Assembly (NCBI GenBank): GCA_902787755.1
Contig: CADAHL010000028.1
Location: 1 to 44,854 of the forward strand
Length of the DNA stretch: 44,854 nt
Source of the DNA: Oscillospiraceae bacterium
Lineage (GTDB): Bacteria > Bacillota > Clostridia > Oscillospirales > Oscillospiraceae
Direction: 5' to 3'
Shown here: positions 3,433 to 17,102 of the stretch, piece after piece
Layout: every line of letters starts with the position of its first letter
Numbering within the stretch: position 1 is the first letter of the stretch
The notes under the pieces: generated by a model
The model's database searches: none
Told to the model about the DNA's origin: nothing
Seen by the model: only the letters and a program-made list of their open reading frames with translations
Translations under genes and position numbers: made by a program

Positions 3433-3466
3433 GGGCGGCGCCATCCAGCGCCGCCCTCTCCTTTTC
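3431..3466 (+). terminator. intrinsic terminator after the radical SAM gene
   Basis: GAGGGCGGCG (3431-3440) pairs perfectly with CGCCGCCCTC (3449-3458) around an 8-nt loop, followed by TCCTTTTC. It overlaps the stop codon and probably also serves the convergent lipoprotein gene ending at 3478. Confidence 0.85.
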
Positions 3467-3477
3467 GCACTTTCCGT

Positions 3478-4335: not shown

Positions 4336-4460
4336 GTCTCGTCCCCCTTCTCATTCGTATTTCATTCCTATGCCCGCGGGAACGGTTTTAATCCTCCCGC
4401 ATCCGGGATTGAGACGTTTTTCATCGGCGAAAGTTCCCGCGCTCCGGATCCGATCCCCAG

Positions 4461-4489
4461 GCATAATTTTTCCCGCCGGCGCATACTCT
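4461..4489 (+). promoter_or_regulatory. sigma-E-type promoter for yabP-yabQ
   Basis: GCATAAT (4461-4467), a 14-nt spacer and CATACTCT (4482-4489) match the Bacillus sigma-E consensus (KMATATT, N14-15, CATACAHT) at 13 of 15 positions. It lies 18 bp before yabP, a mother-cell sporulation gene in Bacillus, so position and target agree. Confidence 0.7.
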
Positions 4490-4507
4490 TTCTCCGGGGG
4501 TGAGAAT

Positions 4508-4792
4508 ATGCCTGAAACACAGGGACAGAAGCTGCCTGCCCGCCGGCACCGGATGGCACTGGAGGGCCGGGAACGGCTGAGCGTGGAGGGAGTGGAGGAC
4601 GTCAGCGGCTTTGACGAAAGTCTGGTGGCCCTGCGCACACCGCTGGGCGAGCTGAACATCCGGGGCGAGGGCCTGCACATCGAACGGATCGACCTGGAGC
4701 AGGGCCAGCTGGAACTCCGGGGCAAGATCGTGGAGCTGGGCTACGACGAGCCGCCCGAGGCCCGGTCCCTCTGGTCCCGGCTCTTCGGCTGA
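4508..4792 (+). CDS. yabP: sporulation protein YabP
   Basis: This is a 94-aa YabP-family protein, recognised from HRMALEGRERLSVEGVEDVSGFDE, the LNIRGEGLHIERIDLEQGQL strand pattern and a short basic C-terminus. YabP is a mother-cell sporulation protein required for normal spore-coat or cortex assembly in Bacillus. ATG 4508 follows a GGGGGTGAG box. It is 2 bp from yabQ and headed by a sigma-E-like promoter, as expected for this pair. Confidence 0.9.
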   Translation: MPETQGQKLPARRHRMALEGRERLSVEGVEDVSGFDESLVALRTPLGELNIRGEGLHIERIDLEQGQLELRGKIVELGYDEPPEARSLWSRLFG

Positions 4793-4794
4793 CT

Positions 4795-5172
4795 ATGACG
4801 GACGAAATACTGCGCCTGGGTCTGGCTGCGCTGCTGGGTCTGACCCTGGGTTTCTTCTACGATCTGCTGCGCCCGCCCCGGCGCCGGGTCGGGGCGATCG
4901 CCGGGGCCCTGCTGGACCTGACTTACGCCCTGACAGCCGGCGCGGGCTGCTTTTTCTTCGCCATGAGCGCGGGAAACGGCCGAATGGGGCTCTGGGAGCT
5001 GGTCTGCGTGCTGCTGGGTCTGCTGGGGTATTGGCAGCTTTTCAGCCCCGCTGTGCTCGGATCCTGGGAGGGCCTGCTGCGCAAAGGGTGGAGCATCATC
5101 CGTTTTTGTAAAAAAAGACTGAAAAAATCCGGTGTTTTTGTAAAAAAATACTTTCAAAATTTAAGCAAATGA
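4795..5172 (+). CDS. yabQ: spore cortex biosynthesis protein YabQ
   Basis: This 125-aa membrane protein has the YabQ signature FFYDLLRPPRRR after the first transmembrane helix, then two further hydrophobic helices and a basic tail. YabQ works in the membranes around the forespore and is needed for cortex formation in Bacillus. Its ATG comes 2 bp after the yabP stop, indicating translational coupling. The last 20 codons are markedly AT-rich compared with the body of the gene. Confidence 0.9.
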   Translation: MTDEILRLGLAALLGLTLGFFYDLLRPPRRRVGAIAGALLDLTYALTAGAGCFFFAMSAGNGRMGLWELVCVLLGLLGYWQLFSPAVLGSWEGLLRKGWSIIRFCKKRLKKSGVFVKKYFQNLSK

Positions 5173-5223
5173 ATTATGATAGTGCGGTGGACGCAGGCCC
5201 GCCGCCGAAAAGGGGGCGGACCC

Positions 5224-5508
5224 ATGCGCAACCACGAAATGATCCTGCGGATCGTAGCCTTGGCGCTGCTGCTGTATGCTCTCGGGAGCTTCGCGGCATC
5301 GGAGCTGAGGCTGCGGCAGACGGAGGCTGAGACCTCGGCGCTGGAGCAACGACTGCTCCGGCTCCGGGAAGAAAACGCCGAGCTGCACACAGCGCTCGAC
5401 CGCGCCGGTTCCGAGGAGGAGATCCTTCGCCGGGCCCGTGAGCGGCTGGGGCTGGTGCTTCCCGGCGAAACGATCTTTTGCTTTCCGACGGCGGATCCCG
5501 GGCACTAA
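5224..5508 (+). CDS. divIC: septum formation initiator DivIC/FtsB family
   Basis: This 94-aa bitopic protein has a short cytoplasmic N-terminus, one transmembrane helix (about residues 6-24) and an extracellular coiled coil with heptads (LRQTEAETSALEQRLLRLRE), ending in the ERLGLVLPGE motif of DivIC. It partners FtsL in the divisome. The frame is open from 5176, but ATG 5224 is preferred because it has a G-rich Shine-Dalgarno and the standard length. yabP-yabQ-divIC-yabR is the Bacillus gene order. Confidence 0.85.
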   Translation: MRNHEMILRIVALALLLYALGSFAASELRLRQTEAETSALEQRLLRLREENAELHTALDRAGSEEEILRRARERLGLVLPGETIFCFPTADPGH

Positions 5509-5529
5509 GCAGACAGAGAGGGGCATATC

Positions 5530-5964
5530 ATGGCGCTGGAAATCGGAAGTATCGTAGAAGGAAAAGTCACCGGCATCACCAAGTTTGGGGCTTTTGTGGC
5601 CCTGCCGGAGGGAAAAAGCGGTCTGGTACATATCTCGGAGATCGCCAACACATTTGTCAACGACGTGGCCGAGCACGTCCAGATGGGCCAGGCCGTCAAG
5701 GTGCGGGTGCTGAACGTCACCCCGGACGGCAAGATCAATCTGTCCATCAAGAAGGCCGTGGATCCCCCCGCACGCCCTGAGCGCCGTGTGAGCGAGCCCC
5801 GTCCCGCCCCCCGTGCGGCCGAAGTCATGGCGGAAGCCGTGGCGGACGGCCCCAGCGGCAACAAGGAATTTGAGGACCGGCTGAAGAAATTCATGCAGGA
5901 GTCCGACAGCCGCATCGCCGATAACCGGCGCTATGCCGAACATAAACAGCGCCGGCGGAGATAG
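5530..5964 (+). CDS. yabR: S1-domain RNA-binding protein YabR
   Basis: An S1 domain fills residues 1-75 (VEGKVTGITKFGAFVALPEG, GLVHISEI, VKVRVLNVTPDGKINLSIK). A Pro/Arg-rich linker and a charged tail ending in KQRRRR follow. The family binds RNA or ribosomes through the S1 fold; its specific role is not established. It is 21 bp after divIC in the conserved cluster. Confidence 0.88.
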   Translation: MALEIGSIVEGKVTGITKFGAFVALPEGKSGLVHISEIANTFVNDVAEHVQMGQAVKVRVLNVTPDGKINLSIKKAVDPPARPERRVSEPRPAPRAAEVMAEAVADGPSGNKEFEDRLKKFMQESDSRIADNRRYAEHKQRRRR

Positions 5965-5976
5965 GAGAAAGAAAAA

Positions 5977-7281
5977 ATGGATATCGTGAGCCTTTATGCC
6001 CAAAAGCGGGTCTCCCCCCAGGAGCTGGCCTCCCGGGTGGAAAACGGGTGGCGCCTGGGAACGGACGCGGCCCTGGCGGCCCCTCCCGGATTCTTTGCCG
6101 CGCTGTCAGAGCGGGCCAGACAGGGAGCTTTGACTGGCGTGACGGTTCAGACCCTGCTGGACGTCTATCCCTTTGATTTCTACGTGGATGAGACGCTCAA
6201 AGGGAAGGTTACCGGCGTTTCCTGGTTTTCCGGCGGCTTCGCCCGGAAGGCGGTAAACGCGGGCCTTGCCGATTTCATTCCCAACTATTACCGTGACACC
6301 CCCAGCCACATTCTGCGCAGCTACGACTATGACGCCGTTTGCTTCTCCGTGTCCCCCATGGACAGGCACGGGTACTTCAGCCTCTCCACCACCTGCTCCT
6401 ATACCCCGGCCATGATCCAAAAGGCCAGGCGGGTGTTCGTGGAGGTCAACCGCAGACAGCCCAGGGCCCTCTGCGGCGGCCAGATCCATATCAGCCAGGT
6501 GGACGCGCTGACGGAGTTTGACTGTGAGCTGCCTACCTTGCCGCCCACCAAACAGGACGAGGTCAGCCTGACCATCGGCGGCCTGATCGCCGAGCGGATC
6601 GACGACGGCTCCTGCATCCAGCTGGGCATCGGCGCCATCCCCGACGCGGTGGGCGCCGCCCTGAAGGACAAGCACGACCTGGGCATCCACACCGAGATGT
6701 TCACCGACTCCATGGTGGAGCTCATTGAATGCGGTGCGGTGAACAACAGCCGCAAGCAGATCCACCGGGGCCAGAGCGTCACCACCTTCGCCTTCGGCTC
6801 TCAGCGGATCTACGATTTCATCGACGACAACCCGGGCATCGCCATCATGCCGGTGGACTACGTCAACGACCCCAACGTGATCTGCAAAAACGACAATATG
6901 ATCTCCATCAATGCCGCCCTGGAGGTGGATCTGATGGGTCAGGTCTGCGCCGAGAGCGTGGGTACCCGGCACATATCCGGCACCGGCGGCCAGGTGGATT
7001 ACGTCCGGGGCGCCTGCCAGTCCAAGGGCGGCAAGAGCTTCATCGCCTTCTCCTCCACCGCAAAGAACGGCACCATCAGTAAGGTTAAGCCCATCCTGAC
7101 CCCGGGCGCGGTGGTCACCACCAGCAAGAACGACGTGGACTACATCGTCACCGAATACGGCGTGGCCCATCTGCGGGGCGAGACCCTGTCCAGCCGGGCG
7201 CGCCAACTCATCGCCATCGCCCACCCGGATTTCCGGGACGAGCTGCGATTCGAGGCGAAGAAGCGCGGCATCCTGATCTGA
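5977..7281 (+). CDS. acetyl-CoA hydrolase/CoA-transferase family (butyrate or 4-hydroxybutyrate type)
   Basis: This 434-aa protein belongs to the Cat1/Cat2-like CoA-transferase family. It has the oxyanion loop GIGAIPDAV (near 217), the catalytic glutamate in GIHTEM (Glu240, matching Glu238 of 4-hydroxybutyrate CoA-transferase) and the CoA-site motif SGTGGQVDYVRGA. The best guess is transfer of CoA between butyryl- or 4-hydroxybutyryl-CoA and acetate, the last step of butyrate formation in gut Clostridia. Substrate choice cannot be fixed from motifs alone. It starts 12 bp after yabR with GGAG upstream, so it may be partly cotranscribed, and a strong terminator follows. Confidence 0.85.
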   Translation: MDIVSLYAQKRVSPQELASRVENGWRLGTDAALAAPPGFFAALSERARQGALTGVTVQTLLDVYPFDFYVDETLKGKVTGVSWFSGGFARKAVNAGLADFIPNYYRDTPSHILRSYDYDAVCFSVSPMDRHGYFSLSTTCSYTPAMIQKARRVFVEVNRRQPRALCGGQIHISQVDALTEFDCELPTLPPTKQDEVSLTIGGLIAERIDDGSCIQLGIGAIPDAVGAALKDKHDLGIHTEMFTDSMVELIECGAVNNSRKQIHRGQSVTTFAFGSQRIYDFIDDNPGIAIMPVDYVNDPNVICKNDNMISINAALEVDLMGQVCAESVGTRHISGTGGQVDYVRGACQSKGGKSFIAFSSTAKNGTISKVKPILTPGAVVTTSKNDVDYIVTEYGVAHLRGETLSSRARQLIAIAHPDFRDELRFEAKKRGILI

Positions 7282-7298
7282 TCTCAAAAAGCAGCGAA

Positions 7299-7342
7299 CC
7301 CCTGCCTTTTCCGCTCACAGTGGAAAAGGCAGGGGCTTTTTT
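7299..7342. terminator. strong, probably bidirectional terminator
   Basis: A perfect 14-bp stem (7299-7312 with 7322-7335) is followed by six T on the plus strand. An A run about 8 bp before the stem gives a weaker T run on the minus strand, where the convergent gene ends at 7353. Confidence 0.9.
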
Positions 7343-7352
7343 CTGTTTTCCG

Positions 7353-7829
7353 TCAACCCGCGGCCCGGGCCAGATTGATGAAATAGGCGTTCATCTGGGC
7401 GAAGGTGATCAGGTCGCAGCGGACGGTGTAGCCCCGGACTCCCTCCGGGGTCTCCCAGCGCAGATTCACCAGGGTGTTGTCCACACGGATGAACCACAGG
7501 CGCTTCTCCCCCAGGATCAGCACGATGCTGCTCTTGTCCGGCTCCAGAGCTTTCCGATCCAACACCGCCGTGCCCTGATCCAGCAGGACCTTGTCGTAGT
7601 AGTCCAGGTCGAAGGCGCTCAGGGGCAGCCGGGTCTCGCCCCGGGCGATCTCCCGCCCCTGGGCGGGGCAGGTCAGGATGGCGTCATTGACCTCCAGGGC
7701 GAAGGCCCGATATTCGGTGCGCAGCGCCAGGGTGTACACGAAAAAGCCGATCAGCAGAAGCGCCGCGCCGACGGCCAGTGCCCCGCCCAGATAGAGCAGG
7801 ATGGTCTTCCGTTGGTAACTCTTGTACAT
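7353..7829 (-). CDS. hypothetical protein with one N-terminal membrane helix, 158 aa
   Basis: No family is recognised. Residues 10-35 form a hydrophobic helix after a basic N-terminus, so the rest is probably outside the cell. The ectodomain has alternating short strands and two charged segments, with no obvious enzyme motif. It lies 75 bp downstream of the zinc-ribbon/TPR gene on the same strand and may act with it. Confidence 0.7.
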   Translation of the reverse strand: MYKSYQRKTILLYLGGALAVGAALLLIGFFVYTLALRTEYRAFALEVNDAILTCPAQGREIARGETRLPLSAFDLDYYDKVLLDQGTAVLDRKALEPDKSSIVLILGEKRLWFIRVDNTLVNLRWETPEGVRGYTVRCDLITFAQMNAYFINLARAAG

Positions 7830-7904
7830 GGTCCTCCTCCCGGCCCGCAGACAATTCCATCTGTCCCCGCAGGGGACGCCTCAACTCTTCCCTTTTCTCT
7901 TTTC

Positions 7905-10004
7905 TCACCCCGGCCGGTATTCGCAGCTGCCCAGCACGTTGCCGGAGGAGTCATATTTCATAAAGATCAGGCTGCCGCCGTCGTTGATATACACGAAGTA
8001 GTGGTAGGGCCCATCGGAGAGCATGAAGCGGTTCTCTCCCTCCAGCTGGGGCAGCTCGCCCCGGAAGCCGGGACCCTCCTGGCCTTCCATCACCAGTACC
8101 GCCGTCTCGTCGACGATCTGGACCCGGGAGGCAAAGGCATAGCTGGCGTCGCTGCCGCCCAGGGACAAGGGGATCAGGGTGGGATCGCCCGTGCCGAAGA
8201 CCCAGCCCGAGCACCAGGGCAGCAGGCGCTCCAGCCGGGACTGCCAGGTGCTTCTGAGATTCCAGGTCCCCTCATAGGCCTCCAGCCAATCCAGGCCGGC
8301 CTGCAGCTCGCCCTCCTCCAGCAGCTGGAAGAAGGGGATCAGCTCCTCATCCACCGGGAGCTCCACCGGCTCCGGGCTCTCCTCGGGCACAGGCTCGGTC
8401 TGCTCCGCTTCCTCCGGCTCCGGCGCTTCCTCCGGCACTTCCTCCGGCTCCTCTGCGGGCGCCGCCGTATAGTGGGCCTGGCTCTTCTCCGCGCTGTCCT
8501 TATAGTCGCCCAGGGAGGCGAACAGCTCCCGCACCGCCGCGTCCAACGGCGTCAGGCTCCGATCCGGAACGTCCTCCAGGCGGATATCCACCAGATCCTC
8601 GCCGCAGGCCCGTCTCAGCTGTCCCAGGAACTGACTGGTCAGCTCCATGGCCAGCTCCCGGTTCAGAGAAAAGACGCTGGTCCCCTCCGGTTCCACGGAG
8701 AGCGAGGCGTAGATCTGTTCGGTCCGATAGCTGCCGATCAGGCTCAGCAGCCCGTCCGCCTTCCGGTAGACGCACTCCAGAGCCATGTCGGCGGCGTCCT
8801 CGTAGTCCCCGAGAGCCAGAAACTGCTGCCTGGCCTGGGAAAAGCTGCCGTTTTCCAGCAGTTCCAGGGCCCGGTCGTAGTCGCCCTGGAGCAGGTCCCG
8901 GCGGGCCTGCACCGCTCCTTCGGCACAGCGCTCGGCCAGGTCGGCACTGTCCAGATAATCCCCCAGGGCCAGGAAGCGCTCCCGGGCCGCGGGGAACAGC
9001 AGCATGGCCGCCGAGGTGTGCTCGTCCAGATCGCTGTAGGCCTTGCCGATCAGGGGCAGGGCAGAGGAGTCGTTTTCCAGCGCCTTATCCATCAGGGCCT
9101 TGGCCTGGAGATAGGGGATGTGCTTCTCCGCCATCTCCCGGCTGTCCCGGTAATTGCCCAGTACCGCAAAGCGGGCCAGGGCCTGCTCGTATCGGCCCTG
9201 CTCCAGCAGCTCGGTGGCCTCCCGGTAATCCCGCCGGTGCTGCAGCGCCCTTGGCACTGTCAGCAGCAGGGCCAGGACCAGCAGCGCCGCGGGGATCCCG
9301 ATGGCCAGGCGGCGGATCCGGCGCTTCTTCTCCTTCTCCGCGCTCTCCCGATCCCGCTCACGGCGGCTCTCGTCGTTCTCCCGGCGGTCGTTTTTCTCCC
9401 GGTGCAGGGACTTGACGTTGACGGTACGCAGGGCGCTCAGGCTCCGGCGGCAGCGATGGCAGCGGCTCTCGTCAATGTGGTTATAGGCCCCGCAGGTGCA
9501 CAGCCACAGCTCCCCGTCGGTCAGGGGGGCATAGCGGCAGTCGGCGCCGTACTGGATCCGATACTGCTCGGCCAGGTCCGGGTCCCCGTAGCTCTCCTCC
9601 AAGGTCCGGGGCTTTTTCAGACTGACCCAGGGCATGGCGCCCGGCCGCCAGGAGCCGCCGTCCAGAAAGCCCACCTCGGTGATCTCGGCCTTGAAGCTCC
9701 GGGTTTCAGGAAAAGGCAGGACGATGGCGCTGCTCTTGCCATATTCTTCATCCCGGCGGAGCATCAGATCCGAAAAGCGGTGGACCAGAGGCTCGCCCAG
9801 GTCCTGCCCCTCCTCGCTCCGCATGGTCACCGCCACCTGCACCGAACGCACGGTGCGGGAGCTGATGTTGCGAAACCGGATCTGGCACAGGAGCTTGCCC
9901 CGGTTGGTATCCTCCAGCAGGCTGCCCGAGGTCAGGATCAGCGGGGATCCGGCGGTGTACAGTCCCCAGTCCCGGCGAAATCGACTCTCATAGCGCTCAC
10001 GCAT
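7905..10004 (-). CDS. zinc-ribbon, single-pass membrane protein with TPR-like repeats, 699 aa
   Basis: Not recognised as a named family. An N-terminal all-beta domain (1-165) leads to a zinc ribbon (Cys169, 171, 182, 185: CxC-x10-CxxC). A highly charged KR/E stretch is followed by one transmembrane helix (233-252). Then come TPR-like units in which 'FxxLGDYxDS/DA' recurs at least five times (about 257-515), a Pro/Glu-rich linker of about 40 residues, and a C-terminal beta domain. The layout suggests a cytoplasmic zinc-ribbon sensor or adaptor with an extracellular repeat domain. ATG 10004 is chosen for its GGAG 9 nt upstream, its own promoter and the poor protein quality of the open frame before it. 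Confidence 0.75.
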   Translation of the reverse strand: MRERYESRFRRDWGLYTAGSPLILTSGSLLEDTNRGKLLCQIRFRNISSRTVRSVQVAVTMRSEEGQDLGEPLVHRFSDLMLRRDEEYGKSSAIVLPFPETRSFKAEITEVGFLDGGSWRPGAMPWVSLKKPRTLEESYGDPDLAEQYRIQYGADCRYAPLTDGELWLCTCGAYNHIDESRCHRCRRSLSALRTVNVKSLHREKNDRRENDESRRERDRESAEKEKKRRIRRLAIGIPAALLVLALLLTVPRALQHRRDYREATELLEQGRYEQALARFAVLGNYRDSREMAEKHIPYLQAKALMDKALENDSSALPLIGKAYSDLDEHTSAAMLLFPAARERFLALGDYLDSADLAERCAEGAVQARRDLLQGDYDRALELLENGSFSQARQQFLALGDYEDAADMALECVYRKADGLLSLIGSYRTEQIYASLSVEPEGTSVFSLNRELAMELTSQFLGQLRRACGEDLVDIRLEDVPDRSLTPLDAAVRELFASLGDYKDSAEKSQAHYTAAPAEEPEEVPEEAPEPEEAEQTEPVPEESPEPVELPVDEELIPFFQLLEEGELQAGLDWLEAYEGTWNLRSTWQSRLERLLPWCSGWVFGTGDPTLIPLSLGGSDASYAFASRVQIVDETAVLVMEGQEGPGFRGELPQLEGENRFMLSDGPYHYFVYINDGGSLIFMKYDSSGNVLGSCEYRPG

Positions 10005-10035
10005 GGCCCACAACTCCTTCGCTTCTTTTTTTCTT

Positions 10036-10064
10036 ATTATAAGCGAGCTTTCGGCCAAACACAA
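10036..10064 (-). promoter_or_regulatory. promoter for the zinc-ribbon/TPR gene
   Basis: On the minus strand TTGTGT (10059-10064), a 17-nt spacer and TATAAT (10036-10041) lie 32 bp upstream of ATG 10004. Confidence 0.7.
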
Positions 10065-10173
10065 CCGCAAATCCGAGATTTTCCAGCACCGGCAACGTCT
10101 TCTGTCTGTATATGTCTCAGAGCAGGATTTCGTTACAGAAAATCGGTTTTTCCGGCAAAACGGTTTTCCGCCC

Positions 10174-10202
10174 TTGCGGCTTTGGGCGCTTGGTGGTACA
10201 AT
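10174..10202 (+). promoter_or_regulatory. promoter for rpiB
   Basis: TTGCGG (10174-10179), a 17-nt spacer and TACAAT (10197-10202) lie 32 bp upstream of the rpiB ATG. Confidence 0.7.
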
Positions 10203-10233
10203 GAGTTGATAATTTCTGACAGGAGGCGGGATC

Positions 10234-10662
10234 ATGCTTGGAATCGGCAGTGATCACGGCGGCTTTCAGCTGAAGCAGGCCATCATGGCCCATCTGCGTC
10301 AGCGGGGCATCGAATACAAGGACTTCGGCACCTACACGGAGGCAAGCTGCGACTATCCGGAATACGGCCGGGCGGTGGCCCTGGCGGTGGCCGCCGGGGA
10401 ATGTGACCGGGGGATCCTGATCTGCGGCACCGGCATCGGCATCTCCATCACGGCCAACAAGGTCCCCGGCATCCGGGCGGCCCTGTGCTCCGACTGCTTT
10501 TCCGCCGAGGCCACCCGCCTGCACAACGACGCCAATATTCTGGCCCTGGGCGGCCGGGTGGTAGGCGAGGGCCTGGCGCTGAAGATCGTGGACACGTTTT
10601 TGGATACTCCCTTCTCCGGGGAGGAGCGCCATGCCCGGCGCATCGCGAAGATTGAGGGATAG
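10234..10662 (+). CDS. rpiB: ribose-5-phosphate isomerase B
   Basis: This 142-aa protein has all RpiB/LacAB landmarks: IGSDHGGFQLK at the start, DFGTYTEASCDYPEY, the phosphate-binding CGTGIGISITANK loop and RLHNDANILALGGR. It interconverts ribulose-5-phosphate and ribose-5-phosphate in the pentose phosphate pathway. The start has AGGAGG 8 nt upstream. It is followed 9 bp later by a DUF4015-like gene, so the two form an operon. Confidence 0.95.
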   Translation: MLGIGSDHGGFQLKQAIMAHLRQRGIEYKDFGTYTEASCDYPEYGRAVALAVAAGECDRGILICGTGIGISITANKVPGIRAALCSDCFSAEATRLHNDANILALGGRVVGEGLALKIVDTFLDTPFSGEERHARRIAKIEG

Positions 10663-10671
10663 GAGCAGACT

Positions 10672-11838
10672 TTGGCAAGATATACAGAATTTTATCGGGG
10701 ACGGAGAAAGCGGCGCAACTACGCCTTCATCCCCTTTGTGATCGCCCTGGCGCTTGTGGCGGTCGTCGTAGTGCTGTTCTACGGCATGCAGAAATACGCC
10801 GTCATCACCAAGGACGGCGTGGACGTGGTTCTGCCCGGCATGGAGCGGGAAGAGACCGTTCTGGGCGGACCGGACGGCGAACTGCCCGTATTCGACGAGG
10901 TGCCCGTCACCCTGGTGATCGAGAACCCGGATTATTCCGGGGTCAAGGCCGTGGCCGGTAAGGATGTGGAGCCCCTGCGGGCCATCTTCATCGCCTCGGA
11001 GGATCTGAACTCGGACAATCTGTTCAGCCGGGCGGCCCAGCTCAACAGCGGCAACGCCCTGGTGCTGGAGATGAAGCCCCGGTCCGGCTATCTGAAATGG
11101 ACCTCCAACGCCAAGCTGGCGGTGGACTACGGTCTGACGGAGCAGAACGAACTGGCCGACAACTGGAAGGCCATGATCCTGGGCCTGCAGCAGTACGCCG
11201 GGGAGCAGGAGAAGGAGATCCGGCTGGTGGCCCAGATCAGCTGCTGCGTGGACAGCGCGCTGGCCACCCGCAGCGCGGATTTCGCTCTGCGCAATGCCGC
11301 CGGCTTTGACATCATCGACGACACCGGCTACTGGCTGGACCCCTACAACACCCAGCTGCGCAGCTACATCGTAGAGCTGGTCCGGGAGCTGTACGACCTG
11401 GGCTTTGACGAGGTGGTGCTGGCGGACGTGGCCCACCCGGTGGTGGAGACCCCGGAGGGCCAGGATCCCATGCAGTTTATGTACTCCAAGGAGATGTCCA
11501 CCGTACCCACGCCGGAGAACGCGGTGTGTGGCTTTGCCCTGTATGTGGCCAACGAGCTCTCCGACCGCACCGGCGGTCTGGGCATCTACACCGGCACCCG
11601 CCGGTCCCTGGTGGGCCTGGACGAGGGTACCGGCCAGAACGCGCCGCTGTTTCTCAAGGTCTATGACCGGGTCTGGTTCCGCACCGACCGCTACGAGTAC
11701 ACCTTCAACTACCAGGATATCGAGAAGCACGTGTCCATCGGCAGCGCCAACGACCGCTTTATGCCCGTGGTCATCAACTATCTGCCGGACAACAGCTCCT
11801 GGGTCTATATTGAGGATCTGGAGGCCCTGAACGGCTGA
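10672..11838 (+). CDS. membrane-anchored putative glycoside hydrolase (DUF4015-like)
   Basis: This 388-aa protein has a basic N-terminus and one membrane helix (about 19-40), which places the rest outside. The body matches the TIM-barrel layout of DUF4015 'putative glycoside hydrolases': strand-like stretches NALVLEMKPRSGYLKW, RLVAQISCCVDSALA, FDEVVLADVAHPV and AVCGFALYVANEL. The polymer it might act on is unknown. The start is TTG 10672, 6 nt after GGAG; the first ATG would remove the membrane helix. It is cotranscribed with rpiB and followed by a strong terminator. Confidence 0.7.
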   Translation: MARYTEFYRGRRKRRNYAFIPFVIALALVAVVVVLFYGMQKYAVITKDGVDVVLPGMEREETVLGGPDGELPVFDEVPVTLVIENPDYSGVKAVAGKDVEPLRAIFIASEDLNSDNLFSRAAQLNSGNALVLEMKPRSGYLKWTSNAKLAVDYGLTEQNELADNWKAMILGLQQYAGEQEKEIRLVAQISCCVDSALATRSADFALRNAAGFDIIDDTGYWLDPYNTQLRSYIVELVRELYDLGFDEVVLADVAHPVVETPEGQDPMQFMYSKEMSTVPTPENAVCGFALYVANELSDRTGGLGIYTGTRRSLVGLDEGTGQNAPLFLKVYDRVWFRTDRYEYTFNYQDIEKHVSIGSANDRFMPVVINYLPDNSSWVYIEDLEALNG

Positions 11839-11863
11839 GCCGTTTCCGCTCTCCCATCCGCAT

Positions 11864-11897
11864 AAAAAAGGCTGTGACGCGTTGTCACAGCCTTTTT
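11864..11897. terminator. bidirectional terminator
   Basis: AAAAAAGGCTGTGAC (from 11864) pairs with GTCACAGCCTTTTT (11884-11897) around a 5-nt loop. T runs lie on both strands, so it can end the DUF4015-like gene and the convergent RiPP precursor gene. Confidence 0.92.
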
Positions 11898-11918
11898 CGT
11901 TTGGAAATGGTGAAGGAA

Positions 11919-12242
11919 TCACCAGCGGCGGAAGTACCTCTTGATCTTAGCCCAGTCGTAGGTAACCGTCTTGGTGACAGTGGTGACCGTAGTGACGACG
12001 GTGGTGACCGTGGTGGTCACAGTCGTGGCGCCGCCGGCCACAAAGTCCAGATCGTCCTCGTCCAGCTCATCGCTGTTGTTGAGGGAAGAGGAGAGGCCGT
12101 TGCTGATGGAATGGATCTCGTCGAGGGACAGATCGACACCCTTGGCGGCAAACAGAGCCTGAACCTGCTCGGGCTCCTCGCAGGCCAGCATTTTTTCCAC
12201 AAAACCCTTTTCCTCTATAATGCTTTTAATCTTTTCGTCCAT
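11919..12242 (-). CDS. Nif11-like leader RiPP precursor with Thr/Val-rich core
   Basis: A 107-aa peptide. Residues 1-71 look like a Nif11-type leader: helical FVEKMLACEEPEQVQALF, AAKGVDLSLDEI, an acidic stretch and a double-glycine end (DEDDLDFVAGG). Cleavage after Gly71 would release a 36-residue core holding 14 Thr and 7 Val in a TTVTTTVTTVV-type array, then YDWAKIKRYFRRW, a cationic aromatic tail. The core has no Cys or Ser. Thr codons vary (ACC, ACG, ACT), so the array is kept at protein level and is not a fresh DNA repeat. AAGGAG lies 8 nt before ATG 12242. The gene stands alone between terminators; no modifying enzyme or peptidase-transporter is in the window. Its function is unknown; a bacteriocin or signal is the family expectation. 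Confidence 0.8.
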   Translation of the reverse strand: MDEKIKSIIEEKGFVEKMLACEEPEQVQALFAAKGVDLSLDEIHSISNGLSSSLNNSDELDEDDLDFVAGGATTVTTTVTTVVTTVTTVTKTVTYDWAKIKRYFRRW

Positions 12243-12389
12243 GGTCTGAGCTCCTTTTCAGATGATTTTGGAAGAGGCATATTGCCTTCTGCTCTTGTAT
12301 AACCGGAAGCGCAGCTATCGTTACAGATATTTTCCGATCCATCCTCCGGAATTGATCAGACCCTGAACCAGATCGCCTTACACGGCCAC

Positions 12390-12420
12390 AGCGCCGGGAG
12401 GATCGGTTCCTCCCGGCGCT
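12390..12420 (-). terminator. GC-rich hairpin after metQ
   Basis: A perfect 13-bp stem (12390-12402 with 12408-12420) with a 5-nt loop lies 36 bp beyond the metQ stop. There is no T run on the minus strand, so it may be a weak terminator or 3' stabiliser. On the plus strand it is followed by T-rich sequence. Confidence 0.6.
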
Positions 12421-12455
12421 GCGCTTTGTTGTTCTTATTGATTGGCGCTTTCTTC

Positions 12456-13280
12456 TCAGAAGATGGGGACCACGGCGCCGTTGTAGGTGCTGTTGATGTA
12501 ATCGCGGACCGCGTCGGACTGGAGAGCCTTCAGCAGGGCCTGGACCGCCTCGCTGTTCTCGTTGCCGGCCTTCACGCCCAGAAGATTGGCGTAGGTCTGG
12601 GCGGCGTCGCCGGAGGCGTCCTCGATGGCCAGGGCGTCGGTCCCGGCGTTCAGGCCGGCGGCCAGGGCGAAGTTGCCGTTAATGACCGCCAGGTCCACAT
12701 CCTGCAGGGAGCGGGCCAGCTGGGCGGCGTCCAGCTCGGTGATGACCAGGTTCTTGGGGTTCTCGGCAATGTCGAAGATGGTGGCGTTGGAGGAGGCGTT
12801 CACGCCCTCCTTCAGGGTGATCAGGCCCTCCTGCTGCAGCAGGAGCAGGGCCCGGGTCTCGTTGGAGCCGTCGTTGGGGATGATGAGCTCGGCGCCGTCG
12901 GCCAGAGCGTCCAGAGAGGCGGTCTTGCCGGCGTAGATGCCGAAGGGCTCATAGTGAATGAGGCCCACGGAGACGATGTTGGTGCCGTTCTCGGCGTTGA
13001 AGCTGTTCAGATAGGGGGTGTGCTGGAAGTAGTTGGCGTCCAGCTCGCCGCTGTCCACCACCAGGTTGGGCTGCACGTAGTCGTCATACTCCACGATCTC
13101 CAGCTCGTAGCCCTCGGCGGCCAGAATGTCCTTGGCGACGGCCAGGATCTCGGCATGAGGCGTGGGGGAGGCGGCGACGCGGATCTTGCCCTTGGAAGCA
13201 GTGCTGTTGGTGCTGCCGCAGCCGGCCAGCAGAGCGACCACCAGAACGATGGCCAGGACGAGAGCGAGTTTCTTTTTCAT
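12456..13280 (-). CDS. metQ: methionine ABC transporter substrate-binding lipoprotein
   Basis: This 274-aa NlpA/MetQ-family lipoprotein has a signal peptide with lipobox LLAGC (Cys21). The body carries RVAASPTPHAEIL, DANYFQHTPYLNSF and IIPNDGSNETRALLLL, all typical of MetQ. It captures methionine (possibly D-methionine) outside the cell and delivers it to MetNI. It is the last gene of metN-metI-metQ, 74 bp after metI, with a good AAAGGAG box. Confidence 0.93.
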   Translation of the reverse strand: MKKKLALVLAIVLVVALLAGCGSTNSTASKGKIRVAASPTPHAEILAVAKDILAAEGYELEIVEYDDYVQPNLVVDSGELDANYFQHTPYLNSFNAENGTNIVSVGLIHYEPFGIYAGKTASLDALADGAELIIPNDGSNETRALLLLQQEGLITLKEGVNASSNATIFDIAENPKNLVITELDAAQLARSLQDVDLAVINGNFALAAGLNAGTDALAIEDASGDAAQTYANLLGVKAGNENSEAVQALLKALQSDAVRDYINSTYNGAVVPIF

Positions 13281-13354
13281 TTTGTTTTCTCCTTTTCCTT
13301 ATAGTTCAGGGGTGGAAGGTCCCTGTCTTTATCGCCCGGAGGCGCTAAATACGA

Positions 13355-14044
13355 TCAGCGGATACGCTTGTCGGATTTCTTCACCAGCACGTTGCCCACG
13401 CCCTGGAAGATCTGCACCAGGATCACCAGCAGGATCACCGCGAAGTACATGACCAGGGGCTGGTAGCGGTTGTAGCCGTAGTTGACGGCGATGCGGCCCA
13501 GGCCGCCGCCGCCCACCGCGCCGGACATGGCGCCATAGCCGAAGATGGTGATGAGGGCCACCATGAAGTTGGAGATCAGGGCGGGCCGGGCCTCGGGGAT
13601 CAGCACCTTGAGGATGATCTGCCAGGTGCCGGCGCCCATGGACTGGGCCGCCTCCACCACGCCGCCGTCCACCTCCCGGATGGAGGTCTCCACCAGCCGG
13701 GCCACAAAGGGGAAGGCCGCAATGACCAGAGGGGCGATGATGGCCTTGGTGCCTACGGTGGTGCCCACCAGCAGTCTGGACAGGGGCAGCACCACGATCA
13801 GCAGGATCAGGAAGGGCACCGAACGGAGAATGTTGATAACGAAGTTCAGCAGCTTCATCAGCCAGCCGGGCAGGGGGTGGATCCCCTTCTCCTCCCCGGT
13901 CACCAGCACCACGCCCAGAGGCAGCCCGATGACAAAGGCCAGGATCGTGGGCACGAAGGTCATCAGCAGGGTCTCCCCGATGGCCTTCCACAGCCCGTTC
14001 TGAATGATATTACGCAGCAGCTCCCATTCCGATTCACTGAACAT
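13355..14044 (-). CDS. metI: methionine ABC transporter permease
   Basis: This 229-aa polytopic protein has about five membrane helices and the permease EAA-type loop (VEAAQSMGAGTWQIILKVLI). It forms the membrane channel of MetNIQ. Its ATG lies inside the end of metN (11-bp overlap) with AGGAGG 9 nt upstream, so translation is probably coupled. Confidence 0.93.
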   Translation of the reverse strand: MFSESEWELLRNIIQNGLWKAIGETLLMTFVPTILAFVIGLPLGVVLVTGEEKGIHPLPGWLMKLLNFVINILRSVPFLILLIVVLPLSRLLVGTTVGTKAIIAPLVIAAFPFVARLVETSIREVDGGVVEAAQSMGAGTWQIILKVLIPEARPALISNFMVALITIFGYGAMSGAVGGGGLGRIAVNYGYNRYQPLVMYFAVILLVILVQIFQGVGNVLVKKSDKRIR

Positions 14045-15038
14045 ACTCGGTCACCTCCTCGGCGGTCACGCCCTTGAGCTCCCGCAGATACAGAAGCGCT
14101 CTGGCTGCCTCCGTTTCGTCCAGGGGCAGGCCCAGGACCATATTGCCAAAGGTCCGGTCGCCGATGGAACGGGTATCGGCGGAGAGAATATTCAGCAGGA
14201 TCCCCTGCTCCCGGGCAAGTCTTGCCACGATGGGCTCTCCGGCGGAGGCCCCGTTGAACACCAGACGCACCAGCCGGTTCTCCGGCAGGACGTGGATCTT
14301 CTCCCCGTCCGGCAGCACCAGGCGCCGCCCTGCGTCGGATTTGGGATTGGAGAAGACCTGGGCGGTGGGCCCCTCTTCCTGGACCTGGCCGTGGTCCAGA
14401 ATGGCCACCCGGGTGCAGATCTGCTCCACCACCCGCATCTCGTGGGTGATGACCACCACCGTGACCCCCAGCTTCCGGTTCAGCTCCTTGAGCAGCTGCA
14501 GGATGGACTGGGTGGTTTTGGGGTCCAGGGCGGAGGTGGCCTCGTCGCAGAGCAGGACCTTGGGATCGCTGGCCAGGGCCCGGGCGATGGCGATGCGCTG
14601 CTTCTGTCCGCCGGAGAGCTGGATGGGATAGGCCTCAGCCTTGTCCGGCAGCTCCACCAGCTCCAGCAGCTCTCTGGCCCGCTTCCGGGCCTCGGCCTTT
14701 TTCACGCCGCTGAGCTCCAGGGGGAAGCAAATGTTGTCCAGGGCGGTGCGCTGCATCAGAAGGTTGAAGCCCTGGAAAATCATACTGATGCTTTTTCTCG
14801 CCTGCCGAAGCTGGCGGGGACTCATGGCGGTCAGATCCTGACCGTCCACGATCACCTGTCCGGCGCTGGGTCTCTCCAGAAGGTTGATGCAGCGGACCAG
14901 CGTGCTCTTTCCGGCGCCGGACAGGCCGATCACGCCGTAGATCTCACCGTCGGGGATGGTCAGATTCACATCCGCCAGCGCCGCGACCTGGTTTTCGCCG
15001 GAGGAGAAGGTCTTGCTCAGATTCCGGATTTCGATCAT
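14034..15038 (-). CDS. metN: methionine ABC transporter ATP-binding protein
   Basis: This 334-aa ATPase has Walker A GLSGAGKST (38-46), signature LSGGQKQR (141-148), Walker B VLLCDEATSALD (161-172) and a switch His in VVVITHEM. The C-terminal ~75 residues form the NIL regulatory domain that senses methionine in MetN proteins (RLVFNGASAGEPIVARLA). It is the first gene of the met operon behind the T-box leader, with GGAG 9 nt before ATG 15038. Confidence 0.95.
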   Translation of the reverse strand: MIEIRNLSKTFSSGENQVAALADVNLTIPDGEIYGVIGLSGAGKSTLVRCINLLERPSAGQVIVDGQDLTAMSPRQLRQARKSISMIFQGFNLLMQRTALDNICFPLELSGVKKAEARKRARELLELVELPDKAEAYPIQLSGGQKQRIAIARALASDPKVLLCDEATSALDPKTTQSILQLLKELNRKLGVTVVVITHEMRVVEQICTRVAILDHGQVQEEGPTAQVFSNPKSDAGRRLVLPDGEKIHVLPENRLVRLVFNGASAGEPIVARLAREQGILLNILSADTRSIGDRTFGNMVLGLPLDETEAARALLYLRELKGVTAEEVTEYVQ

Positions 15039-15059
15039 TCTTGTTTACTCCAACAATCT

Positions 15060-15276
15060 TTCTGAAAATATCTGTCGGGGGAGTTCAGAGGGGATCTCCC
15101 CTCTGATTTTTCGCCTCGCAAGGCGAAAAAAGTATCAAATCCGTTTTTTCCGGGGGCGTGTACCTCGGAAAAAACTCTTCTCGCGGAGTGAGTGTGCGAA
15201 CGATCCCCCGCGAGTGAGTGCGCGAACGGAGTGCTTTCTTATTTACTTTTTAGCCCCGCCAGGGGGTAAAAAGTCC
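15060..15276 (-). repeat. hairpin-rich leader between the T-box terminator and metN
   Basis: This stretch has no gene but holds at least four inverted repeats: CAGAGGGG..CCCCTCTG (15087-15106), a TTTTTCGCCT..AGGCGAAAAA stem (about 15108-15130), a TTTTTTCC..GGAAAAAA stem (about 15143-15173) and a TTTTTAGCCCC..GGGGGTAAAAA stem (about 15247-15272). It also has a direct repeat of GAGTGAGTGYGCGAACG (about 15186 and 15213). These lie in the transcribed leader, so they could fold, attenuate or simply be decayed intergenic repeats. Confidence 0.7.
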
Positions 15277-15548
15277 AAAAAAACCGCCCTTACAACTTGT
15301 AAGGACGGGAGAAACCTCTCGTGGTACCACCTTGCTTCGCGGCCGGAGCCGCCTCAGAAGCGTACTGACATACGCATCGTCTGTAACGGGACTTCCCGTC
15401 GGACTCTTGCGTTCCCGCTCGAACCCGCAGCTCCAAGACCATGTTCGCCCGCCCTCCGCCTGTCCCTTTTCAGCTGCCGGGACTCTCTGTTGAGGTTTCC
15501 GTCGGGGTACTCTTCTCTTCTTCGCCTTTGCTTTTACCTATTGAATTG
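15277..15548 (-). promoter_or_regulatory. T-box riboswitch controlling metNIQ (probably methionine-specific)
   Basis: The minus strand carries the T-box core AAGGTGGTACCACG and then a terminator (stem 15284-15307, T run 15277-15283) that overlaps it, as expected for tRNA-controlled antitermination. The Stem I part contains AAGAGAAGAGTA (AG-bulge-like) and, in the expected place, GAACATGGTCTTGGAGC. The ATG there (15440-15442) would be a methionine specifier codon, which agrees with the met transporter downstream. The specifier assignment is inferred from position, not a computed fold. Confidence 0.88.
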
Positions 15549-15553
15549 TCTGC

Positions 15554-15583
15554 AATATAGCACGAGGGAAAAGATCCTGTCAA
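15554..15583 (-). promoter_or_regulatory. promoter of the met T-box operon
   Basis: Minus strand TTGACA (15578-15583), an 18-nt spacer and TATATT (15554-15559) with an upstream TG (extended -10). It lies immediately before the T-box leader. Confidence 0.85.
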
Positions 15584-15652
15584 GGCTTTTTTGGCGTTTT
15601 GCAAAAGCTCTATGTTTACCACAAATCGTTTCGGAAAAATTGGGGAAAATTT

Positions 15653-15684
15653 TGTTGATAATGTGGAAAAGTGACAAATTGTCA
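15653..15684. promoter_or_regulatory. two adjoining DnaA-box-like 9-mers plus a palindrome
   Basis: On the minus strand TTTTCCACA (15662-15670) directly abuts TTATCAACA (15653-15661). Each differs by one base from the DnaA box TTATCCACA, and both 9-mers recur in the oriC region. Next to them TGACAA-A-TTGTCA (15672-15684) is a perfect palindrome. They sit 70-100 bp upstream of the met promoter -35. Confidence 0.5.
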
Positions 15685-15716
15685 TCAGATTTGTCGGCGC
15701 CGGGCTGCATCCCCTC

Positions 15717-15786
15717 CGTCAAAAGAGTCCGCAGGACTTTTTTGACGGCCAAAAAACGGTTCCGGAAAGACTCCGGAACCGTTTTT
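15717..15786 (-). terminator. two consecutive terminator hairpins after acpP
   Basis: A stem of AAAAACGGTTCCGGA with its complement (15752-15786) has T runs on both strands. A second 15-bp stem with a GCA loop (15717-15749, one G-U-type mismatch) follows. Together they separate acpP from the met promoter. Confidence 0.85.
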
Positions 15787-15810
15787 GGCTTTGTTCTTTG
15801 TGCACTCTGC

Positions 15811-16038
15811 TCAGCGCAGCTTCTCCAGGTACTCCACGATCTTGCGGACGGTGGTCAGCTGAACGGCGTCGTCGTCGGAGATGGCGATACCGAACTCGTC
15901 CTCCAGGGACATGATCAGCTCCACCACGTCCAGGGAGTCGGCCCCCAGGTCGTCCATAATGTTGGTGTCCATGGTGATGGTCTCGGGATCCAGCTCAAAC
16001 TGGGAAGCCAGAGCGCTCTGTACTTTTTCAAACAACAT
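15811..16038 (-). CDS. acpP: acyl carrier protein
   Basis: This 75-aa acidic protein has the phosphopantetheine site GADSLDVVELIM (Ser in DSL) and helix II/III patterns of AcpP. It carries acyl intermediates in type II fatty-acid synthesis. Of two in-frame ATGs, 16038 is preferred because GGAGG lies 8 nt upstream; the one at 16044 would sit 2 nt from it. It follows jag by 47 bp, an unusual neighbourhood for acpP, and probably shares its transcript. Confidence 0.93.
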   Translation of the reverse strand: MLFEKVQSALASQFELDPETITMDTNIMDDLGADSLDVVELIMSLEDEFGIAISDDDAVQLTTVRKIVEYLEKLR

Positions 16039-16085
16039 ATTCATTTCCTCCGATGTGCCGATGGCACATAAAGTGATTACAGCAC

Positions 16086-17102
16086 TCAGGCCCACTCGCG
16101 GCTGGTGGGCTTATTGCTGGCGGACGTCTTGGGCTGCTCGGGAGCGGGAGCCGGGGCGGCGGGCTTTCTGTCGCGGTCACGGCCGCGGCCTTTCCTTTCG
16201 CCGCTTCTCTCGCTGCTTCTTTCGCCGCCCTCGGGCTTTACGTAGGAGACCACCACCCGGCGGTTGGGTTCGGTGCCGGTGGAGCTGGTGGTGACGCCCT
16301 CATAATCCTGCAGGGCCGTATGGATCACATGACGCTCATAGGAGTTCATGGGCTCCAGCGCCATGCTGCGCTTGTACTTGATGGCCTTGGCCGCCATCTT
16401 CTCGGCCAGGTGGGCCAGCTGCTCCTCCCGCTTGCTGCGGTAGCCCTCGGCGTCCACGCTGATGTGCAGGCGCTTATCCGTGTCCTTGTTGACCACATAG
16501 TTGGTCAGGTGCTGGATGGCGTCCAGGGTCTCGCCCCGACGGCCGATGATGGCGCCCATATCGTCGCCGGACAGCTCCACGATCACACCGCCGTTCTCGC
16601 GGGGACGGATCTGCATCTCGGCCTGGACGCCCATGCGCTCCAGCAGGCCGGTCAGGAAGGTACGGATGGCGTTCAGATCCTCTTCCTTGGGCTCAACGGG
16701 GGCCTTCTCCTGCTTCTCGGCCTTGGGGGCCTTCTCGGGCTTGGGCTGCTTGGGGGCTTCGGCCTTCTTCTCCTGCACGGGAGCTTCCTCCTTCGCAGGC
16801 TTCTCCTGTCTGGGCGCCTCAGCCGCAGGGGCTTCCGCTTTGGGTGCCTCGGCCTTTTTCTCGGGCTTGGGCGCGGCGGGCTTCTCCACCTTGGGCTGTA
16901 CCGGCGCAACAGGCTTGGGCTCGTCCGGGACGAAATAGGTCACGCGGACCTTGGCCGGCACGGCGCCGATGCCCAGGAAGCCGGATTTGGGCAGCTGCAT
17001 GACCTGGACGGTCACGTCCTCCCGCTCCAGACGAAGCTCCGCCAGGGCGGCGGCGATGGCCTCGTCCGTGGTGCGGCCGGTCTTCTCAATAAATTTTTCC
17101 AT
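16086..17102 (-). CDS. jag: RNA-binding protein Jag/KhpB
   Basis: This 338-aa protein has an N-terminal Jag_N domain (EKTGRTTDEAIAAALAEL, 1-50), then a ~110-residue Lys/Pro/Ala/Glu linker of low complexity (about 60-160). A KH domain with GxxG (GAIIGRRGETLDAIQ) and an R3H domain (MNSYERHVIH) follow, with a basic Arg-rich tail. Jag/KhpB binds RNA and is usually encoded next to SpoIIIJ/YidC, as here. ATG 17102 follows AGGAG; the open frame continues upstream into yidC but is not coding there. The linker is longer than usual for the family. Confidence 0.93.
   Translation of the reverse strand: MEKFIEKTGRTTDEAIAAALAELRLEREDVTVQVMQLPKSGFLGIGAVPAKVRVTYFVPDEPKPVAPVQPKVEKPAAPKPEKKAEAPKAEAPAAEAPRQEKPAKEEAPVQEKKAEAPKQPKPEKAPKAEKQEKAPVEPKEEDLNAIRTFLTGLLERMGVQAEMQIRPRENGGVIVELSGDDMGAIIGRRGETLDAIQHLTNYVVNKDTDKRLHISVDAEGYRSKREEQLAHLAEKMAAKAIKYKRSMALEPMNSYERHVIHTALQDYEGVTTSSTGTEPNRRVVVSYVKPEGGERSSERSGERKGRGRDRDRKPAAPAPAPEQPKTSASNKPTSREWA

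What the first reader, a model, noticed from the sequence alone, without database searches (positions are those of the whole stretch)
11919..12242. Orphan Nif11-leader RiPP precursor with a Thr/Val core and cationic aromatic tail
Seen: a 71-residue acidic leader ends in VAGG, then a 36-residue core holds 14 Thr and 7 Val in a TTV/TTTV array and ends in YDWAKIKRYFRRW. The Thr codons differ (ACC/ACG/ACT), so the repeat is kept by protein-level selection. Known: Nif11-type leaders precede modified peptides, some with beta-branched cores that are epimerised or dehydrated. Inferred: a Cys-free, Thr-rich core is not a lanthionine substrate, so it would need another chemistry (Thr dehydration, epimerisation, glycosylation) or act unmodified. 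No maturation enzyme or C39-transporter is in this window, so it would be an unlinked or orphan precursor.
Basis: partly seen in the sequence, partly recalled or inferred. Interest (0 to 1): 0.82.

Follow-up and report, generated by a model that had tools for sequence, protein, structure and literature searches.

The report
Unlinked heptad-repeat peptide precursor
A small gene that looked like a lone peptide precursor has three sister genes scattered in the same genome, which share its leader and a promoter-like signal with a distant peptide-processing cluster; its odd threonine/valine stretch is spaced like a spiral with one water-loving and one oily face, which suggests a membrane-active peptide.

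Summary
The ORF is real (minus strand, 12242..11919, 107 aa): 71-aa leader ending VAGG, 36-aa core with 14 Thr, 7 Val and a YFRRW end. It is unlinked in the window but not an orphan. The same draft genome holds three homologues with related leaders and identical FRRW ends. Two lie beside an apparently complete RiPP cluster: NHLP export with a C39 peptidase, ECF sigma factor, peptide arginase (OspR family), DUF7005 protein with HExxH, radical SAM/SPASM enzyme and CPBP protein. A promoter-like motif, TGTAAC-N17-KTATR, occurs five times in 2.54 Mb, always in this pathway, including 55 bases before the window ATG. The Thr/Val array is three heptads followed by two more, with a helical (102 degrees), not beta, hydrophobic period. 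A distant cluster with the same enzymes has a Nif11 precursor ending FRGW. Best reading: a dispersed, sigma-co-regulated family of amphipathic, cationic peptides, probably with tail Arg converted to Orn, exported after VAGG. Chemistry, regulation and bioactivity are inferred. The Nif11 HMM score is below cut-off. New variant of a known kind.

The parts
11919..12242 (-). precursor peptide gene, 107 aa (ATG 12242-12240, stop 11921-11919)
   Evidence: translation; homologues; leader dN/dS
12030..12242 (-). Nif11-like leader, residues 1-71, ending VAGG
   Evidence: TIGR03798 22.8 bits, sub-threshold; conserved with three homologues and with the L038 precursor
11922..12029 (-). core, residues 72-107: A + TTVTTTV TTVVTTV TTVTKTV TYDWAKI KRYFRRW
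11964..12026 (-). three Thr/Val heptads (21-nt tandem period)
   Evidence: TRF 11961-12027, period 21, 3.2 copies
11922..11942 (-). cationic aromatic tail KRYFRRW; F104, R105 and W107 invariant in the five precursors aligned
   Evidence: alignment; two further precursors (G726) share only the final W with Arg nearby
12298..12325 (-). ECF-type promoter-like motif TGTAAC-N17-TTATA
   Evidence: 5 occurrences in the genome, all in this pathway; 61 hits in 60 genus mates
12251..12258 (-). ribosome-binding site AAAAGGAG
   Evidence: sequence; AAAGGAG before all four paralogues
11865..11897 (.). hairpin AAAAAGGCTGTGAC-GCGTT-GTCACAGCCTTTTT between the precursor and the DUF4015 gene, terminator-like on both strands
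   Evidence: read by eye; not reported by the scan

Best explanation
The window gene encodes one of four precursors of a dispersed RiPP regulon. An ECF sigma factor encoded in the remote cluster (contig C2) probably turns on precursor promoters and the maturation operon together. The Nif11-like leader is taken up by the C2 enzymes. The peptide arginase probably hydrolyses Arg of the FRRW tail to ornithine, and the radical SAM/SPASM enzyme (with or without the DUF7005 HExxH protein) makes a second, unknown change. The C39 peptidase of the NHLP transporter cuts after VAGG and exports a 36-residue cationic peptide whose five heptads form an amphipathic helix with a Thr face and a Val/Ile/aromatic face; it would act on membranes as a bacteriocin-like peptide. 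Shown by sequence: the ORF, its homology, the motif and its genome-wide places, the enzyme families with arginase ligands kept, the heptad periodicity. Inferred: sigma-promoter recognition, which enzymes use this substrate, Orn formation, helix, activity.
For: Three whole-length homologues in the same genome with identical FRRW ends. C2 cluster: TIGR03796 959.1 bits (cut-off 853.3) and TIGR03797 772.2 (709.4); ECF sigma; PF12640; PF22541; radical SAM + SPASM. The arginase matches OspR structure 8brp at E 1.4e-42 alone and 1.9e-77 as a three-row profile, and keeps the EEH, DxHxD and LDIDxDYF residues that hold the ligands His12, Asp39, His41, Asp43, Asp165 and Asp167 of OspR (PMC10028609, passages). 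Motif: 5 of 5 genome hits in the pathway, reversed-pattern control 0; 61 hits in 60 genus mates, about one per genome. The L038 cluster, with the same enzyme families, has a Nif11 precursor (44.6 bits, over cut-off) ending FRGW. 0 of 17 Nif11 precursors from 7 other family genomes end FRxW. Helical period (Eisenberg scale): reached by 3 of 5000 shuffles for the core and 0 of 5000 for the Thr/Val segment. Low-confidence AlphaFold2 model: one helix 65-105.
Against: HMM score below the Nif11 cut-off. The motif was derived from these same five places, and one of them points away from the sigma gene, with no ORF over 20 aa ahead of it on that strand to L011:8200. The C4 paralogue core shows no helical period (1561 of 5000); C2b is borderline on the Kyte-Doolittle scale (241 of 5000); two G726 cores are not significant on the Eisenberg scale (623 and 2547); among five controls two come as low as 166 (Eisenberg) and 163 (Kyte-Doolittle) of 5000. 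The model has mean pLDDT 60.6, from one sequence. G677 has arginase, DUF7005 (broken) and radical SAM homologues but no detected precursor of this kind. The two G726 precursors end VRSRW, so F and the first R of FRxW are not kept there, and one of 17 control precursors also ends RW. NCBIfam arginase score 195, below its 350 cut-off. I recognise no immunity gene among the window neighbours scanned. The genome is an 86-contig draft, so linkage of contigs rests on binning.
Confidence: 0.62

Rival explanations
1. Unmodified class II-like bacteriocin: the core is exported and cut by the NHLP transporter without any change; the arginase and radical SAM enzyme serve only the two clustered precursors.
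For: A second NHLP-like cassette in this genome lies beside small ORFs with CW_7 and LysM domains behind short SGG leaders, so such exporters may carry unmodified proteins. An amphipathic cationic peptide could act as it is. One G726 precursor has a weak match to a class IIb bacteriocin model (19 bits, cut-off 21.5).
Against: F, R and W of the tail are the only core positions invariant in the five aligned precursors, all from genomes with the arginase; the promoter-like motif also fronts the maturation operon.
Confidence: 0.2
2. Substrate of the LanM locus in the same genome (about C2:111-116.6 kb), with Thr dehydrated to dehydrobutyrine.
For: A LanM (DUF4135 + LANC_like) and a C39 transporter exist in the genome; the core is Thr-rich.
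Against: The small ORF beside the LanM, its presumed precursor, has a different leader ending VQGG; the window leader matches the NHLP-cluster precursors instead; no Cys in the core.
Confidence: 0.06
3. Decaying duplicate: a copy of a cluster precursor whose core drifted into a Thr/Val repeat and is no longer used.
For: No listed match in 60 genus mates covers the precursor (the listing is cut and only up to 4 candidates per genome were scored); core dN exceeds dS in 5 of 6 pairs.
Against: Intact frame, ribosome site, motif and tail; leader under purifying selection; helical spacing kept.
Confidence: 0.1

Closest known systems
Nif11-type precursors (N11P, TIGR03798) with NHLP export (PMC2887384, 2010; passages seen)
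   Same: long leader ending in a Gly-Gly-type motif; NHLP transporter set TIGR03794/03796/03797; several precursors per genome
   Different: HMM score below cut-off; Cys-free heptad core with FRRW end; the words arginase, radical SAM and sigma have 0 occurrences in that paper's main text
Peptide arginases OspR, FlmR and OhkR (PMC12703449, parts 1-2 of 5 and passages; PMC10028609, passages)
   Same: same enzyme family, metal-ligand motifs kept; N11P precursors are named there as one substrate type
   Different: here with DUF7005, a PqqE-like radical SAM/SPASM enzyme and an ECF sigma gene; tail FRxW; two of four precursors unlinked
Selidamide (phaeornamide) cluster (PMC9505594, passages)
   Same: dual-function transporter genes and an OspR-like arginase
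   Different: no LanM or GNAT family among the C2 cluster proteins scanned; Nif11-like instead of NHLP leader
Prochlorosins (abstract of PMC10783134, in the listing)
   Same: Nif11 family precursors served by one enzyme
   Different: lanthipeptides, whereas this core has no Cys
Nif11-class radical SAM maturases (NCBIfam TIGR04103, seen as a name)
   Same: radical SAM enzyme paired with Nif11-type precursors
   Different: the L038 homologue of the C2 enzyme scores 50 bits against a cut-off of 725; the model is not among the 25 shown for the C2 enzyme

Membership tests
Nif11-like leader RiPP precursor (N11P) | TIGR03798 score over the curated cut-off | tested here: not met
   22.8 against 32.3 bits; its homologues L038:10640-10993 (44.6) and two in L088 (46.6 and 43.8) meet it
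Nif11-like leader RiPP precursor (N11P) | leader ends in a Gly-Gly-type cleavage motif followed by a variable core | tested here: met
   VAGG in the five aligned precursors, cores diverged
Nif11-like leader RiPP precursor (N11P) | maturation enzymes and NHLP exporter in the genome | tested here: met
   C2 cluster, not linked to the window gene
Peptide-arginase substrate | encoded with a PF12640 peptide arginase that keeps the metal-ligand motifs | tested here: met
   same genome, not same contig
Peptide-arginase substrate | Arg in the core converted to Orn | not testable with these tools
   core has three Arg (R102, R105, R106); needs mass spectrometry
Lanthipeptide | core Cys for thioether rings | tested here: not met
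   no Cys in the core
Peptide arginase of FlmR/OhkR type (NF052474), for the C2 enzyme | score over the curated cut-off | tested here: not met
   195 against 350 bits; the PF12640 cut-off is met (41 against 27)
Epimerised proteusin | OspD/PoyD-type epimerase (recalled) | tested here: inconclusive
   the radical SAM enzyme is PqqE-like with SPASM; epimerase activity cannot be judged

The most novel reading that the evidence does not exclude
The pathway is a dispersed RiPP regulon with an export checkpoint. In three distant clusters the gene just after the ECF sigma encodes a small protein with a precursor-like leader end, ELxDDxLDxVAGG, near its C terminus. If that protein is the anti-sigma factor, cutting or export of its leader mimic by the NHLP transporter would free the sigma factor only when the exporter works, as FlgM export does for flagella (recalled). 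Scattered single precursors such as the window gene would then be switched on together, each delivering a different heptad-built helix with a common ornithine tail.
Probability: 0.15. Interest if true: 0.78.

Novelty: new variant of a known kind. Interest (0 to 1): 0.52.

Why it matters
It shows how an apparent orphan precursor can be assigned to a pathway from a shared promoter-like motif, leader and tail even when it lies on another contig; mining that stays inside a cluster would miss it. If the chemistry holds, it is a family of ornithine-tailed, heptad-built amphipathic helices with very different cores on one enzyme set. A family of unknown function (DUF7005) is placed in RiPP clusters, and a testable link between exporter and ECF sigma is suggested.

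Tried and rejected
Beta-strand or amyloid reading of the Thr/Val array: rejected, no 160-180 degree period (4676 of 5000 shuffles reach the observed value on the Eisenberg scale, 3127 on Kyte-Doolittle, 1513 on a binary scale).

Lanthipeptide reading: rejected on leader and lack of Cys.

Export by the second NHLP-like cassette (C3): less likely, as the two small leader-bearing ORFs I saw beside it have short SGG leaders and other domains.

Relatives in public collections: none by genome-contig scans with P0002 and with the radical SAM enzyme (the own genome may be left out there), none by a viral-contig scan with A5. Plasmid hits to the radical SAM enzyme (197 records) are all below 60% identity and none covers 80% of it. 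Arginase: own genome alone out of 394 order genomes; with a three-row profile 8 of 391 class genomes, own and seven that match only over the first third.

DUF7005 is not tied to the arginase everywhere: 6 of 398 phylum genomes have DUF7005, own included. Own, G800 and G677 have the arginase in the fetched region; G726's contig ends within DUF7005; the G1007 and G679 regions show none. The rest of these genomes was not searched for the arginase.

DUF7005 fold: no solved relative (best E 0.82). Its protein was not sent for structure prediction, because it came from the fetch from genomes and the rule of that tool does not list such loci.

GNAT reading of L038:14104-14859: no Pfam or NCBIfam match; not claimed.

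Literature: DUF7005 in 0 papers. Searches for Nif11 with arginase, UPF0489, ECF sigma, selidamide, Ruminococcaceae, and for peptide arginase with heptad and anti-sigma with RiPP terms listed 3 of 3, 20 of 27, 20 of 53, 8 of 8, 12 of 793, 10 of 171, 8 of 71 and 8 of 25 papers; among those listed, no title or shown abstract described this family. Five papers were opened (PMC12703449, PMC2887384, PMC9505594, PMC12636437, PMC10028609), by passages or parts only; the others were seen only as listings.

Full report
Observation. The frame is on the minus strand, 12242 to 11919, 107 residues. Leader 1-71 ends VAGG; the core has 36 residues with 14 Thr and 7 Val and ends YDWAKIKRYFRRW. A ribosome site AAAAGGAG lies 8 bases before the ATG. 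The neighbours are a DUF4015 gene (10672-11838, plus strand) and an ABC importer on the minus strand that looks like a methionine importer: NlpA lipoprotein 12456-13280, permease 13355-14044, ATPase with NIL domain 14034-15038. Ten ORFs of the window were scanned there; seven gave a family, none a RiPP enzyme or C39 peptidase, and three gave none. The rest of the window was not scanned.

Family. TIGR03798 gives 22.8 bits against a cut-off of 32.3, and Pfam Nif11 does not appear at E<=1, so the Nif11 label stands only by relation. The own genome (2.54 Mb, 86 contigs, 92.33% complete) holds three whole-length homologues: C2:89504-89821, C2:89886-90194 and C4:199-522, at 53, 59 and 44% identity. 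Leader dN/dS is 0.23-0.46 over six pairs; in the core dN exceeds dS in five of six pairs (core alignment uncertain).

The pathway. Around the C2 pair (families) lie, in C2 coordinates: STAS 79124-79498, NHLP ATPase/permease 79508-82066, C39 peptidase transporter 82081-84225, HlyD-like 84229-85080 (120.9 bits, below its 156.2 cut-off), ECF sigma 85142-85660, a 65-aa ORF 85884-86081, peptide arginase 86123-87007, DUF7005 86998-87864 with HEITH, radical SAM/SPASM 87857-89323, all minus strand; then on the plus strand the two precursors and CPBP 90213-91196. The arginase aligns to OspR (8brp) at E 1.4e-42 and keeps the motifs that hold the ligands listed in PMC10028609 (passages). The radical SAM enzyme is nearest PqqE among solved structures (E 3e-22, profile of three).

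Co-regulation. TGTAAC-N17-KTATR was read off the upstream regions and then searched in the whole genome. It occurs five times: before the window gene, before C2:89504, before C4:199, before the radical SAM operon, and beside the sigma gene pointing away from it. The reversed pattern gives 0 in this genome. In 60 genus mates there are 61 hits in 31 genomes, at least five in 2 of 60, and the reversed pattern is often commoner there. Because the pattern was built from these places, the weight lies in its presence before three separate precursor loci and its absence elsewhere in the genome.

Core anatomy. The core splits as A + TTVTTTV TTVVTTV TTVTKTV TYDWAKI KRYFRRW. TRF finds a 21-nt period with 3.2 copies. 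Nucleotide lag 21 is reached by 14 of 5000 codon shuffles, amino-acid lag 7 by 38 of 5000; with synonymous codons shuffled, 931 of 5000, so the DNA repeat is not clearly stronger than the protein repeat. Hydrophobic moment at 95-105 degrees (Eisenberg): shuffles reaching the observed value, of 5000, are 3 for the window core, 0 for the Thr/Val segment, 0 for C2a, 48 for C2b, 33 for L038, 1561 for C4, 623 and 2547 for the two G726 cores; and 464, 1657, 1676, 2669 and 166 for five control cores that I picked from the list. On the Kyte-Doolittle scale C2b gives 241 and two controls 163 and 257. The helical period is thus strong in the window peptide and C2a, moderate in C2b and L038, weak in G726, absent in C4, and not unknown among controls. 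A single-sequence AlphaFold2 model puts residues 65-105 in one helix at low confidence (mean pLDDT 60.6).

Relatives. Of 398 phylum genomes, 6 have DUF7005, own included. G800 (L038) has HlyD, both ABC proteins, ECF sigma, DUF7005, arginase, a radical SAM/SPASM homologue at 41% identity, and a Nif11 precursor ending RRVFRGW with an Ala/Thr/Val-rich core start. G677 (L039) has homologues of the same enzymes, DUF7005 broken, and no precursor found at E<=0.001. G726 has two Nif11 precursors, over the TIGR03798 cut-off, ending VRSRW; its other contig ends within DUF7005. Of 17 Nif11 precursors in 7 other genomes of the own family, none ends FRxW and one ends RW. In 300 genomes of the family no other gave a whole-length relative of the four precursors; five others match weakly. 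No listed match in 60 genus mates covers the window precursor, but that listing is cut.

Judgement. The gene is most likely an unlinked member of a sigma-coordinated family of precursors served by the C2 cluster. Conversion of tail Arg to Orn is the likeliest chemistry: the enzyme is present, F, R and W are the invariant core residues of the five aligned precursors, and known enzymes act on several precursor types, N11P among them (PMC12703449, parts 1-2 of 5). The radical SAM step is unknown. Membrane action is an inference from amphipathicity and a net charge of +5.

Regulation lead. In L038, L039 and L042 the gene after the ECF sigma encodes an 80-104 residue protein whose end copies the precursor leader end, VAGG included; the own 65-aa ORF has the related DDELEMDDLDRISAAA. 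No convincing Pfam family fits. An anti-sigma role is my guess.

Noticed in passing
L038:9189-9431 (+), L039:7605-7919 (-), L042:4288-4593 (+); own L011:7885-8082 (-): Small proteins near the ECF sigma gene with a precursor-leader-like end (VAGG in three of four), possibly anti-sigma factors coupled to export.
   Followed up: partly
L037 (G000:C3:16500-36000), 8821-16784: A second NHLP-like export cassette in the own genome, next to small ORFs with short SGG leaders followed by CW_7 or LysM domains.
   Followed up: partly
L036 (G000:C2:108000-121877), 3051-8587: A LanM lanthipeptide locus with its own C39 transporter and a small ORF with a VQGG leader.
   Followed up: partly
L011:7691-7718 (+): The fifth copy of the promoter-like motif overlaps the sigma gene's upstream region but points away from it, with no evident gene ahead of it.
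   Followed up: partly
L089 (G679:C20): Precursor-like ORFs with VAGG leaders and Asn/Thr-rich cores (TTTAPQGPTVQQTTTNNTQIVNNNN...), another low-complexity core type, next to an NHLP-like ATPase.
   Followed up: no
window 10672-13280: The two genes flanking the precursor each occur in many genus mates; where I compared both in the listing they lie on different contigs, so this junction may be lineage-specific.
   Followed up: partly
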